Below are positions 2,167 through 14,350 of a DNA stretch of 64,000 nucleotides, one piece after another. The notes beneath the pieces are model-generated. The model saw only the letters and a list, made by a program, of their open reading frames with translations, did not search any database and was not told the origin of the DNA. Location: the NCBI GenBank assembly GCA_020746875.1, contig JAGTJL010000001.1, positions 186,001 through 250,000 on the forward strand, in the 5' to 3' direction. The stretch is from Rhexocercosporidium sp. MPI-PUGE-AT-0058. Its lineage: Eukaryota > Ascomycota > Leotiomycetes > Helotiales. Every line of letters begins with the position of its first letter. Position 1 is the first letter of the stretch. A program made the translations under genes and the position numbers.

Positions 2167-2632
2167 TTATGGGCAGGTACTCCCGCCGCAGGCATACTCA
2201 TCCCCAACCTTGTGGCACGAGCAACCCCTCTTCATCAACTCGTCCGTGGCACTCAACGCCAGGTCACGAGGACAGGTGGAACCGCCGCAGATGCTGTTTT
2301 TGCAGTTGTGTTGGCATCTCCGCTTTTTTTTCTTTCTTATTCCTATTGGAACTTATCGATGGTCGATGATGAATGGTGGGAGAGTAGGGAGGAAGGTGAA
2401 GAGGAGATGGAGAGGGAAGGGGAGAGGGAAGAGGAGAGGGAAGAGGAGAGGGAAGAGGAGAGGGAAGAGGAGAGGGAAGAGGGGGCTCTGAGAAAATGAG
2501 AAGAAGGAGGAAAACGTACTATTCATCCCCGACCTTATGGCACGAACAACCCCTTGCTTCGATAGATGGGGGTGGTGCTGCGAGAGCGAGGGCCGAGAGG
2601 AATGTTAGGGCGAGGGTGAGTGAGAACTTCAT
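2167..2632 (-). CDS. Secreted two-repeat cysteine peptide precursor
   Basis: Two-exon gene read by hand: exon 1 2632-2520, intron 2519-2294 (GTACGT...ACAG, 226 nt), exon 2 2293-2167, giving 79 aa. The first 19 residues are a clear signal peptide (start MKFSLTLALTFLSALALAA). Two modules follow: GCSCHKVGDEYICGGSTCP directly after Ala-Arg, and the same sequence with Ile changed to Ala directly after Met-Lys-Arg, a classic Kex2 site, ending at the stop codon. Each module has four cysteines (C-x-C-x8-C-x4-C). The intron falls inside the Tyr codon of the first copy. The copies differ at nine synonymous codons and one replacement, so the peptide itself is under selection. The architecture (signal, repeated peptide, basic cleavage site) is that of fungal Kex2-processed repeat precursors, such as pheromones and RiPP precursors. 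I do not recognise this peptide; it does not resemble known alpha-pheromones. Its function is unknown: signalling, antimicrobial or effector roles are all possible. The model is well supported; expression is unproven. Confidence 0.85.
2421..2481. repeat. 12-bp purine minisatellite inside an intron
   Basis: About five copies of a GGGAAGAGGAGA unit lie entirely within the intron of the minus-strand repeat-peptide gene, where they read as a polypyrimidine tract. The open plus-strand frame of Glu/Arg repeats across it is an artefact of this repeat. Confidence 0.85.
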
Positions 2633-2790: not shown

Positions 2791-2797
2791 TTATATA
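2791..2797 (-). promoter_or_regulatory. TATA box of the repeat-peptide gene
   Basis: TATATAA on the minus strand, 159 bp upstream of the ATG at 2632. The stretch just before the ATG is A/C-rich (CAATCAGCAAAATGAAG), as in well-expressed fungal genes. Position and sequence fit a core promoter; this is inference. Confidence 0.5.
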
Positions 2798-5207: not shown

Positions 5208-6696
5208 ATGTCAGGTGCGAGGAGAGTCAGTCTTAATTCCCAGGGCGAGCTTGCTGGTGGGAAGGTTCAGAAGACGGATATTGTGTGGGTTCACACTCCC
5301 CAGTTAATACCTCCATCCAACAAACTTCCAGCATCTTCTTTGCGGTATATCATGCCAAAAGCTATACAAGAGCTGACATCGAACCAGGCTCTACACATCC
5401 GGAACGCCGAATGGCCAGAAAGTATCTATGACTCTCGAGGAGCTCGGGCTAAAGTACGAGACGAAACATATCGATATCTCGAAGAATACGCAGAAGGAGG
5501 AGTGGTATTTGAAGATTAACCGTATGCAACTCTCCACATCTCTATCACTCTAAAAAGATTAATAAAAAAAGATTCTTGGGGTGGAATTCGAGTGCGAAAT
5601 ATACGAACTGACGAGGGAAATGATAGCAAATGGACGTATCCCAGCCATCATTGACCGAACGGAAACAGCAGAGGGAAAGAGCCATGAGAAGAGAGTCTTT
5701 GAGGGTATGGCTATTATGCTTTATCTTTGCCAGAAGTATGATCAGGAGTATGTGATCTCGTATGCTTTTGATAGCGACAGGTAGGTATTCCTTCTTGATA
5801 TTTCACTTCTCTGAGAAAAAGCGAGAGGAAAGCTATGAACTTCTGTTATTTTTTTTTTGGCGGATAGAGAGATGGGTAAAGAGATCAGGAGCTAGATGAG
5901 AGATGTCAGGCGGCGACTGACGCGTATCTAGGTATTGGGAAATCGTCGAGTGGATGACTTGGATGCAGAGCGGAATCGGTCCTATGCAGGCAAGTTCCAT
6001 TTCCTATGACATATTTTTTTTCTGGTCTAACCTGATGCACCCAGGGACAAGCAAATCACTTCTTCCGCTACGCACCCGAAAAGATCGAATATGCCATCAA
6101 TCGCTACCAAACCGAAGTTCGTTCCCTCTCCCATCTATTCACTCCTCCTTCCCCCTTCCGCAATTCTCAAAGATCCCATCACTAACATACCCAATCAACA
6201 GACCAAACGCCTCTACGGCGTGCTCAATGACCGTCTCGCCCAACAAAAATCAGCAAATCACACTGCAGCAGGGACAGAAGCCTCCACAGCGGGCGGCGAC
6301 AAAAGTAAAGCCGAAGGCGGCGGACCCTGGATCGTAGGTGACAAGTTGACAATCGCTGACATTGCGTGTTTTTCGTGGGTTAATTGGGCGGAGTGGGCTG
6401 GGGTGGGTTTGGATGAATTTCCGTGAGTTCTTTCTTCTTCTCAGAAACGCTGTTCAGGAACGGATTGTGAATACATGTTGGAAGCATGTATGCTGATAGG
6501 CTTGATGTGTAGGGAAGTTAAGCAGTGGGCTGATAAGATCAATCAACGACCTGCGATCAAGAGGGGACTGGATGTACCGGAGCCGTTTAAGATGAAAGAG
6601 AAGATGAAGACTAAGGAAGGGGAGAAAGAGTTTGAGGAACATCATAGTAAGTGGGTTATGGATGGACAGAAGAAGGACCAGGAGAAGCATAAGTGA
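5208..6696 (+). CDS. Glutathione S-transferase, Ure2p/YfcG-like
   Basis: Seven exons: 5208-5284, 5388-5521, 5627-5780, 5932-5989, 6045-6116, 6202-6422 and 6513-6696, giving 299 aa. All junctions keep frame; most introns carry a CTGAC or CTAAC branch site. The N-terminal thioredoxin-fold domain is recognised by [20 protein letters not shown], then [11 protein letters not shown] and the helix reading [10 protein letters not shown]. The C-terminal helical domain has [28 protein letters not shown] and [18 protein letters not shown], the standard order of this class. These enzymes conjugate or reduce substrates with glutathione in the cytosol; the substrate cannot be read from sequence. Between LYGVLND and WIVGDK there is a low-complexity Ala/Gly/Lys insertion. 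Intron 4 (5990-6044) begins GCAAGT, a non-canonical GC-AG intron. The ATG at 5208 was chosen over an in-frame ATG at 5073 because the stretch between them is AT-rich and leader-like. Confidence 0.88.
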
Positions 6697-9684: not shown

Positions 9685-10833
9685 TTACAGACACTGAGAG
9701 TAATATGGGTTGGAAAATGTGCAGGCCGTTCCGGATACACAAGCAGTTGTACCACTCCATGCAAGCCCGCCACATTGTCCCCACTTGACCTGCGGTGCAC
9801 CGGTAGGTGTTGCAGTGGCACTCGTTGTTGAGGTACTGCTAACACTCTTACTAGTAGTCAACGTCGTTGGAATCGCAACACTCGTCGAACTACTCCCAAC
9901 AGTACCCTCCGGCCGCGAAAAACACCCAGTCCCCGTGCAAGTCAAATCAAACCACCTCAATACCTCAGCAGCATTCGTCTGGATATCATGCGTAACGCCC
10001 TGAGCACTAACAGCCATGAACTTCTCCCCGTAAATATAAGTCGTCCATCCACTCTTCAGATCATTAGGCAGCGTCTTGACAGGCGTACTCGGCAACCCCA
10101 ACACGGCAGTCCATTCCTTGATCTCCTCCTGTAGATTCTGCGGGTACAGAACCTGATCCGCCGTTCCGTGGAAGACCTGCATCTTTGGTCTCCAGCCCGT
10201 GTAGCCCGGGTATGCTGCCTCGACAATGGCTTTCCACTCCGCGCCTGTCTTGACAATCTTTCCGGTCGCGCATGCATCGCTCCAAACGGCGTAGCCATTA
10301 CCGGCATAACATCCGAATGCGACCCCTGCCCAAGCACTACCAGCTGCGAAGACGTCCGGGTATGAGCCAAGGAGGACATTTGTCATCATAGCGCCGGAAC
10401 TTGTGCCCATAGAAAACACCCTCCTCGCGTCGCCGTTGTACTTCTGCAGCGTCCATTTCACCATACTGACGATACCCTGACTGTCGCCTCCGCCATTATG
10501 AGAGAGTGTTTGAGGTGAGGAGACATCCCAGCATTGGCCTTCAGCGTTGGGAGAGCTGGGGAAAATCATGATATAACCATAAATATCTGCGAGAGTCGCC
10601 AACTGTGTTCCGGCGAATGCAGCTTGTGCGGTACCTTGACACCAGTGGGGATTGACGAGGATGGGAGGGCTGGGTGCGAGTTTTGAGGGGAGATAGAGAT
10701 AAAAGGAGACATTGGTTGGGTTAGGGCCGAAGGGTTCTGTGATATGGATGAGGGGATTTGCGGCGCTGGAGACGGAGGAGAGGAGGGAGAGGAAGATGGA
10801 AATGCCCGCTAGGGCTGTTTTGAAAGATGACAT
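9685..10833 (-). CDS. Secreted CE1 acetyl-xylan/feruloyl-type esterase with CBM1
   Basis: Single-exon gene, 382 aa from the ATG at 10833. An in-frame codon further upstream (10911) would put the signal peptide internally, so I start at [10 protein letters not shown]. Order: signal peptide (1-25), esterase domain of the PHB-depolymerase-like CE1 group (about 28-300), Ser/Thr-rich linker (about 305-348), C-terminal fungal cellulose-binding module CBM1 (about 349-382, starts [13 protein letters not shown], with four cysteines). Catalytic residues inferred from family: Ser145 in GTSSG, Asp226 in FHGTADQ, His282 in GVTHD. Family members remove acetyl or feruloyl groups from xylan outside the cell; which one cannot be decided here. 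The upstream flank has a minus-strand TATA-like element at 11044-11050 and a CCCCTAGGGG palindrome at 11071-11080. Confidence 0.92.
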
Positions 10834-11043
10834 TGGAAAGGAGTACAGAAAAGTACGCTGAAGAGACAAGTTCAATTGATACGAAAAGCAACACACGAAC
10901 AGAAGAAACATGCAAAATAAAACAGAACTTTGAGGCGCTTTTTGATATCAATATCCAGAGGTGGAATTAACCCCCTCCAAGACACGGAGACGAGACGCCG
11001 CCACTAGCATTCGAATTTGGCATCGCAGGATGATGTTCCGTGA

Positions 11044-13649: not shown

Positions 13650-14350
13650 TCAGCAAGCCCGCCATTCAAGCGTGGTAGTTACCTCTCCCTCATTGAAGTA
13701 TGTATGCTTCGAAGATCCCCCTCCTATTCCAGTGACAGCACCGCGATTGGTGATCATCAAGAACGAAGTACTGCCGCAATCTGACCACAATCTATCTCCC
13801 TTGTCAACATTATCTGTGACATCGAAGGTCCCTTTCGCCGGACCCACAAAGTCATGGCGTGTGTTGGCTGTGCCAGCCTCTGTTTTCGTTAACATTTGAA
13901 GCTTCTCGAACCTGGCAATCGCCTTACCTCCTTGGAAACCGTATCTCATCAAGTGACTAGCTGTCGCTCCAACTGGAATGTCCACCGTATCACGATAGCT
14001 GGTACTGACGACCGAGAATTGCCTTCCTTCCGGGTAGCCGAATTCGATTCCCAAGCCGCAGAACTCCTCGCTCTCGCTCTGAGGAACGTTGGAGCCCTTT
14101 GTTACGTCGAAGGCTGGGAAGTGAGCTACGATTCTGATGATTCATGTCAGCTACCATGTTGTGCAGAGGTCTATTATAGCAGGGCTTACTTGTTCTGATC
14201 GACCTTGACCCAGAAGTCGGCCGTCCCTTGAGGACACCCACTCCCCCAGTGTGTCACCGCGGCTCTATTTTCCAGAACCATGCCTTTAACACGGGACAGA
14301 ACTGTCGCAGCCGCCACAACAACACCAAACAAACACGGTTGGTAAAGCAT
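13650..14350 (-). CDS. Secreted DUF4360 protein
   Basis: Two exons: 14350-14190 and 14133-13650, with a 56-nt intron (GTAAGC, CTGAC branch, ATCAG acceptor), giving 214 aa. A nearer acceptor (CGTAG) would break the frame, which fixes the junction. A signal peptide covers about residues 1-21 (starts MLYQPCLFGVVVAAATVLS). The mature part follows the DUF4360 pattern: WGSGCPQGT near the N-terminus, FPAFDV, a cysteine in EEFCGLGIEF, GYPEGRQFSVVSTSYRDTVD and a late cysteine in LWSDCGST. Members are small secreted proteins of filamentous fungi; no biochemical role is established to my knowledge. The start at 14350 places the signal peptide at the N-terminus; an upstream in-frame ATG at 14404 would add 18 residues before it. 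Confidence 0.85.

What the first reader, a model, noticed from the sequence alone, without database searches (positions are those of the whole stretch)
2167..2632. Undescribed secreted precursor releasing two copies of a four-cysteine peptide
Seen: signal peptide, then GCSCHKVGDEYICGGSTCP after Ala-Arg and its twin (Ile to Ala) after Met-Lys-Arg, the second ending exactly at the stop. Known: fungal pheromone and RiPP precursors use this secretory, Kex2-cleaved repeat layout. The peptide does not resemble alpha-pheromones such as the WC...GQPC type. Inference: a new family of Kex2-processed, disulfide-bonded peptides (signalling, antimicrobial or effector). It is easily missed because the gene is short and spliced inside the first repeat.
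Basis: partly seen in the sequence, partly recalled or inferred. Interest (0 to 1): 0.88.

Follow-up and report, generated by a model that had tools for sequence, protein, structure and literature searches.

The report
Fungal four-cysteine secreted peptide family
This small fungal gene looks real and encodes a secreted precursor with two nearly identical four-cysteine peptides; related peptides turn up in both moulds and mushrooms, so it belongs to a family without a name that the published survey rules would not pick up from this gene.

Summary
On the minus strand, exons 2632-2520 and 2293-2167 join across a 226-nt intron into a 79-aa precursor: signal-like N-terminus, short pro-region, GCSCHKVGDEYICGGSTCP, a 14-residue linker ending in Lys-Arg, then a twin ending at the stop. 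It is more than chance: the cores differ by 9 silent codons and 1 replacement, and an orthologous fungal contig, misfiled in a bacterial MAG, has the same intron position and dN/dS 0.045. The gene appears single-copy here. Searches found 37 related proteins in Helotiales, Colletotrichum, Nectriaceae and Basidiomycota, with up to 4 cores. Of 58 cores with enough upstream sequence, 57 follow an aliphatic-x-x-Arg-type site (extended Kex2 motif), only 15 a dibasic one. Two published KEP surveys require at least three repeats between dibasic sites, so this gene falls outside them by design. Best reading: a Kex2-type precursor releasing disulfide-locked hairpin peptides that act outside the cell on a protein target. 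No RiPP link (nearest UstYa match about 416 kb away); not an alpha-pheromone; a weak pacifastin resemblance is not clearly separated from scrambled controls. Cleavage, the C-terminus of copy 1, disulfide pairing and function are unproven.

The parts
2552..2632 (-). Signal-like N-terminus and short pro-region (MKFSLTLALTFLSALALAAPPPSIEAR), codons 1-27, ending in the Ile-Glu-Ala-Arg site
   Evidence: residues 4-18 mean Kyte-Doolittle 1.99. No signal-peptide predictor was available; the signal cleavage point is inference.
2520..2551 (-). Core peptide 1, exon 1 portion of GCSCHKVGDEYICGGSTCP
2294..2519 (-). Intron, 226 nt, GTACGT...AAACAG, inside the Tyr codon of core 1
   Evidence: same position in ortholog L047 (839-978, 140 nt)
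2269..2293 (-). Core peptide 1, exon 2 portion
2227..2268 (-). Linker RDLALSATDELMKR ending in Leu-Met-Lys-Arg
   Evidence: 11, 12 and 13 of 14 residues identical in relatives P0001, P0002, P0003; helical in the model of relative P0001
2170..2226 (-). Core peptide 2, GCSCHKVGDEYACGGSTCP
2167..2169 (-). Stop codon TAA directly after core 2
2791..2797 (-). TATATAA sequence, about 159 nt upstream of the ATG
   Evidence: Read by eye; function is inference

Best explanation
The gene encodes a secreted pro-peptide of an unnamed fungal family. After signal-peptide removal, a Kex2-type protease of the secretory pathway cuts after the aliphatic-x-x-Arg motifs (Ile-Glu-Ala-Arg and Leu-Met-Lys-Arg) in front of each core. 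This frees core 2 as an exact 19-mer, and core 1 either as a 19/20-mer (if Pro-Arg is also cut) or with a C-terminal linker tail. Each core folds as a short hairpin closed by two disulfides. The window's peptides are slightly acidic and under strong purifying selection, so they most likely act outside the cell by binding a specific protein, as a signal or as a defence/competition peptide towards other microbes or its own hyphae, rather than by breaking membranes or as a plant-only effector. Shown: gene structure, repeats, selection in one ortholog pair, conserved intron, homologues with 1 to 4 cores in two phyla, conserved cleavage-like site, no UstYa match within about 416 kb. Inferred: secretion, cleavage, disulfides, hairpin, target and role.
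For: Gene structure. Ortholog with the same intron position, dN/dS 0.045, core 1 with 0 replacement and 9 silent changes, and a partly conserved gene neighbourhood. Homologues: 9, 18 and 37 proteins in successive searches. 59 cores in 38 proteins including the window's; 57 of 58 with enough upstream sequence follow [L/I/M/V/F]xxR, 15 of 58 are dibasic. PMC8528282 (passages) gives P1 Arg, variable P2 and aliphatic P4 as the extended Kex2 motif. One match to the proprotein-convertase P-domain in the genome. Hairpin in both AlphaFold2 models, core pLDDT about 70. Net charge about -1.2 for both window cores (cysteines counted as reduced).
Against: No expression, peptide or cleavage data. Models are weak overall (mean pLDDT 60 and 61), and a fold search of the first gave nothing at E 0.001 or better. 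Charges of the other 57 cores run from -2.2 to +2.7, so a cationic mode is open for some relatives. Core conservation is uneven: cores average only 56% identity within Colletotrichum, which fits a fixed target less well. Core 1 has no strong C-terminal Kex2 site. Core 2 is less conserved than core 1 between window and L047 (3.2 against 0 replacement changes), so the copies may not be equivalent. In Coprinopsis, removal of other kep genes gave no detectable phenotype (PMC9769878, abstract).
Confidence: 0.7

Rival explanations
1. Only the pro-region is removed; the two cores stay joined as one 52-residue secreted protein with two hairpins.
For: The linker is conserved (11 to 13 of 14 residues in three relatives) and is modelled as helix. 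Core 1 has no strong C-terminal cleavage site.
Against: The linker ends in Lys-Arg directly before core 2, and the aliphatic-x-x-Arg motif recurs before internal cores of the 2- to 4-core relatives, P0034's first core excepted. Single-core relatives show that one core can suffice.
Confidence: 0.15
2. A protease inhibitor of the pacifastin type, reduced to the half of the domain that carries the reactive loop.
For: Sub-threshold Pfam Pacifastin_I matches in 3 of 10 relatives scanned, all Fusarium: P0021 (1.1e-5), P0022 (5.2e-5), P0026 (0.0019), profile positions about 14-36 of 40; and in 3 of 10 single cores, best 2.5e-4, which is better than any scrambled control. P0021 carries a precomputed PF05375 label.
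Against: All below the curated cut-off; neither window core matches. Two of 10 scrambled cores that kept only Cys, Gly and Trp in place matched too (0.0017 and 0.0096), so much of the resemblance rests on that skeleton. The family has Gly where I recall the inhibitor's P1 residue to lie, and lacks two of the six cysteines I recall for pacifastin.
Confidence: 0.1
3. A membrane-active antimicrobial peptide (a rival on function, compatible with the same processing).
For: Small, four cysteines, hairpin model, signal-like N-terminus; some relatives' cores reach +2.7.
Against: Both window cores have pI 5.3 and charge about -1.2; median charge of the other 57 cores is -0.2.
Confidence: 0.12
4. A plant-directed effector (a rival on function, compatible with the same processing).
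For: Relatives occur in Rhynchosporium, Oculimacula, Colletotrichum and Fusarium, genera that I recall as plant-associated.
Against: Also in Agrocybe, Cyathus, Crassisporium, Cyclocybe and Pleurotus, which I recall as mushroom-forming; single cores reach 84% identity between Helotiales and Agaricales.
Confidence: 0.15
5. A dikaritin-type RiPP cyclised by UstYa (DUF3328) enzymes.
For: Secretory repeat precursor layout; at least 57 UstYa matches in the genome.
Against: Nearest UstYa match on this contig about 416 kb away; none among the 14 neighbouring frames scanned against Pfam. Four conserved cysteines suggest disulfides instead.
Confidence: 0.03
6. A sexual alpha-type pheromone.
For: Kex2-type repeat precursor. 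PMC6339444 also reports alpha-pheromone-like KEPs in Basidiomycota (abstract; passage).
Against: Four cysteines rather than two; no Trp and no GQPC-like end in the window cores. The same paper states that known Basidiomycota sexual pheromones are a-type only (passage).
Confidence: 0.03

Closest known systems
Kex2-processed repeat proteins (KEPs; PMC6339444, PMC7329392)
   Same: Signal-like N-terminus, repeated core peptides, Kex2-type sites, copy number varying between species.
   Different: Two repeats and one dibasic site. Both surveys demand at least three repeats between dibasic sites (methods sections). Four-cysteine core; relatives with a single core exist.
[quoted passage not shown]
   Same: Pro-region ending in an LxxR-like site before the mature part, most clearly in the single-core relatives.
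   Different: Repeats; mature part only about 19 residues; no effector function known.
Dikaritin RiPPs (ustiloxin type)
   Same: Secreted repeat precursor cut by a Kex2-type protease.
   Different: No UstYa match within about 416 kb; cysteine core.
Ascomycete alpha-pheromone precursors
   Same: Repeat precursor cut by Kex2.
   Different: Core without the two-cysteine pheromone motif; four cysteines; relatives also in Basidiomycota.
Pacifastin and other CxC...GxWxC....C modules (FnI, VWC)
   Same: Spacing of four cysteines with a Gly and, in most relatives, a Trp (Tyr in the window).
   Different: Half of the domain only, below cut-off; scrambled controls match in a similar range, though the best real core is better.

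Membership tests
KEP | Secretory signal peptide | tested here: inconclusive
   Hydrophobic N-terminus; no predictor available.
KEP | At least three repeats between dibasic sites | tested here: not met
   Two cores, one Lys-Arg site; criteria read. Fusarium relatives P0021-P0023 have 3 or 4 cores; whether their sites pass the survey rules was not worked out.
KEP | Cleavage by Kex2 in vivo | not testable with these tools
   P-domain match in the genome; motif before 57 of 58 cores.
Dikaritin RiPP | UstYa/DUF3328 gene close by | tested here: not met
   Nearest match on the contig at C1:604190, about 416 kb away (exon-by-exon search, counts are lower bounds).
Alpha-pheromone | Two-cysteine core of WC...GQPC type | tested here: not met
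   Sequence. Motif from the finding and recalled; examples in PMC6339444 passages.
Pacifastin | Score above Pfam cut-off | tested here: not met
   No Pacifastin match for the window precursor or its cores; Fusarium relatives below cut-off, best 25.5 against 27.9 bits; scrambled controls 2 of 10.
Pacifastin | Inhibits serine proteases | not testable with these tools
   Bench assay needed.
TIGR04076 | Score above curated cut-off of 33 bits | tested here: not met
   20.3 bits, E 6e-4, for the window precursor; none of three relatives scanned (P0022, P0010, P0009) matched it.
Any named Pfam or NCBIfam family, or PDB relative | Match above cut-off (Pfam, NCBIfam) or clear match (PDB) | tested here: not met
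   Pfam (best E 0.013; cut-offs not shown there); NCBIfam (4 proteins). PDB (best E 0.59; none; best E 3.1). P0021 carries a precomputed PF05375 label that the scan here puts under the cut-off.

The most novel reading that the evidence does not exclude
A peptide messenger shared between fungal phyla: one closely similar four-cysteine hairpin, made by moulds and mushrooms and read by a conserved target, kept by strong selection or passed horizontally between them.
Probability: 0.15. Interest if true: 0.85.

Novelty: new variant of a known kind. Interest (0 to 1): 0.6.

Why it matters
Single cores can be 84% identical between Helotiales and Agaricales, while precursors carry from one to four copies. 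That points to a conserved extracellular target, or to transfer between phyla. Because most cores follow monobasic aliphatic-x-x-Arg sites and many precursors have fewer than three copies, the published KEP rules do not reach genes like this one. A search by this site plus a short cysteine core could reveal more such families.

Tried and rejected
RiPP link: rejected for this locus. Paralogues: two protein searches and two DNA patterns (17 and 19 matches) of the own genome; of the 36 pattern matches only the window gene has an in-frame CxC 4 to 8 residues upstream. The patterns demand Asp/Glu before Tyr/Trp and would miss a core split there by an intron. Two further weak protein hits, on contig 12, were judged chance by eye: a transporter-like frame (E 0.139) and a coiled-coil-like frame (E 0.082).

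Pacifastin/VWC homology: weak hits were tested with ten scrambled cores made from two Fusarium cores; two matched, so the resemblance is not used as evidence of kinship, although the best real core scored better than any scramble. PDB by sequence: nothing convincing. Viral contigs: none. Bacterial origin: the only relative found in genome contigs has the same intron and a similar neighbourhood, so I take it for a mis-binned fungal contig. Metal binding through the His after CxC was considered and dropped, since that position is H, K, T or R in the 22-core alignment.

In print: text searches for peptide strings gave 0 papers, all on unrelated subjects by their listing; six locus tags gave 0. 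Searches gave listings (12 of 12, 20 of 496, 1 of 1, 20 of 21 and 20 of 36 papers shown) in which I saw none naming this family. Papers opened: PMC6339444 (abstract, sections 10, 17, 24, passages), PMC7329392 (abstract, first part of section 6, section 13, passages), PMC9769878 (abstract and a term search that found no 'cysteine' or 'disulfide'), PMC8528282 (passages). Supplementary tables of the KEP surveys could not be read, so the 3- and 4-core Fusarium relatives may be listed there.

Full report
What is there. On the minus strand the gene runs from ATG at 2632 to TAA at 2167, with an intron at 2519-2294 that splits the Tyr codon of the first core. The product, MKFSLTLALTFLSALALAAPPPSIEAR-GCSCHKVGDEYICGGSTCP-RDLALSATDELMKR-GCSCHKVGDEYACGGSTCP, has 79 residues. 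A TATATAA sequence lies about 159 nt upstream (by eye).

More than chance. The two cores differ at 13 nucleotides: nine silent codon differences (one a TCC/AGT serine switch) and one replacement. In 20,000 random placements of 13 changes on core 1, none gave one or fewer amino-acid changes. A scan of prokaryote genome contigs (24 pattern matches, 1 relative) found L047, filed as a Deltaproteobacteria MAG. It encodes a 79-aa precursor of the same layout with an intron at the identical position (GTACGT...TTCAG, 140 nt). In the surrounding 39.5 kb a coiled-coil-like frame, the peptide gene, a glutathione S-transferase gene and a CBM1 esterase stand in the same order and orientation as around the window gene; one further conserved gene has moved and is inverted. 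The GST and CBM1 names are from Pfam; the others are by eye, and Pfam named neither. I take the contig for a mis-binned fungal one. Between the two coding sequences there are 33.8 silent and 9.2 replacement differences (dN/dS 0.045); core 1 has 9 silent and 0 replacement, the linker 6 and 4, core 2 5.8 and 3.2 (Nei-Gojobori, one pair, silent sites near saturation). The introns align poorly (98 identical of 237 columns).

The family. A single-sequence search gave 9 proteins, a profile 18, an enlarged profile 37 (all at E 3.2e-5 or better). The tool reaches only relatives sharing short words, so this is a lower bound. They include Cadophora, Rhynchosporium and Oculimacula (Helotiales looked up for the first two), Colletotrichum, Thelonectria, Ilyonectria and Fusarium (Nectriaceae looked up for Thelonectria), and Basidiomycota: Cyathus (Agaricales), Agrocybe, Crassisporium, Cyclocybe, Pleurotus and Ceratobasidium (Cantharellales). 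Placements not looked up are recalled. Of nine proteins named as basidiomycete, eight lie on contigs of 63 kb to 2.5 Mb, which argues against contamination.

Copy number. A script found 59 cores in 38 proteins, the 37 hits plus the window protein; P0006, P0007 and P0017, fragments or unspliced frames, had none. One core: 8 of the 9 named basidiomycete proteins (Pleurotus P0034 has two). Two: P0001-P0003 and the window; three of six Colletotrichum proteins (the others have one). Three or four: Fusarium P0021-P0023; the five near-identical F. oxysporum models have two each and inflate the count. The script's pattern demanded the four cysteines and the Gly. In a separate alignment of 22 hand-typed cores from the first two searches, the invariant columns are the four cysteines, that Gly and the Arg before the core.

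Cleavage site. Of 58 cores with at least five residues upstream (one of 59 left out), 57 have Arg two places before the first Cys and Leu, Ile, Met, Val or Phe at P4, but only 15 are dibasic. The exception is the first core of P0034, whose start may be mis-modelled. PMC8528282 (passages) gives this as the extended Kex2 preference. Both KEP surveys used dibasic sites and at least three repeats (methods sections), so this gene falls outside by design. The first core ends Cys-Pro-Arg-Asp, and in several Colletotrichum proteins Cys-Pro-Lys-Asp. Release of copy 1 as a clean 19-mer is therefore uncertain.

Shape. Two AlphaFold2 runs (exon 2 of the window with 16 rows; Cadophora relative P0001 with 23 rows; other rows chosen from the 37 hits) place a hairpin in each complete core, with pLDDT about 70 there and 60 to 61 overall. 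The strands put Cys4 opposite Cys13, leaving Cys2 and Cys18. Loop length varies from 8 to 10 in relatives, so the pairing is not settled. The window's cores are slightly acidic; the other 57 cores run from -2.2 to +2.7, median -0.2.

What it is not. No named family matched above cut-off in the scans made. Pacifastin matches in three Fusarium relatives and 3 of 10 single cores are below cut-off, and 2 of 10 scrambled cores match in the same range, though the best real core (2.5e-4) beats the best scramble (1.7e-3). UstYa genes are plentiful in the genome (57 matches, a lower bound) but the nearest on this contig is about 416 kb away. There is no pheromone motif.

Across phyla. Mean core identity between Helotiales and Agaricales is 65%, against 56% to Colletotrichum and 61% to Nectriaceae (31 hand-typed entries out of 46 distinct cores). 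The phylum boundary is thus not visible in the core. Conservation is uneven: within Colletotrichum the mean is 56%, within Agaricales 60%, within Helotiales 89%. With about 19 residues, constraint and horizontal transfer cannot be told apart.

Function. Purifying selection, near-neutral charge and presence in mushroom-forming as well as plant-associated genera (ecology recalled) favour a specific extracellular protein target over membrane attack or a plant-only role. This is inference. The rivals on function listed above are compatible with the same processing, so the odds given are not meant to sum to one. The cross-phylum messenger reading remains open and is the boldest one the data allow.

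Noticed in passing
L047 (NYXK01000182.1), L050, L051: A 127.8-kb contig filed as Deltaproteobacteria MAG CPC1 carries an intron-bearing fungal gene and a gene neighbourhood like the window's: apparently mis-binned.
   Followed up: partly
P0004 (Rhynchosporium secalis RSE6_10894), P0006, P0007: Gene models that depart from the family right after GDEY or GDDY, where the window's intron lies (P0006 one residue later); P0004 resumes at VCGG, so the deposited model looks mis-spliced.
   Followed up: partly
   Followed up: no
window 2400-2480: The intron holds a GGGAAGAGGAGA-type repeat on the + strand (by eye); it was not seen by eye in the shorter L047 intron.
   Followed up: no
window 5377-6423: Glutathione S-transferase gene in several exons, next to the peptide gene here and on the L047 contig.
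   Followed up: partly
window 9688-10947: Esterase (Esterase_PHB) with fungal cellulose-binding domain CBM_1.
   Followed up: partly
window 13653-14141: DUF4360 frame.
   Followed up: no
G000 C34:2592341-2602710 and C2:2370954-2390343: Clusters of UstYa matches, candidate RiPP-type gene clusters on other contigs.
   Followed up: no
window precursor residues 27-55: Sub-threshold resemblance to NCBIfam TIGR04076 (E 6e-4, 20.3 bits against cut-off 33); not seen in the three relatives scanned.
   Followed up: no
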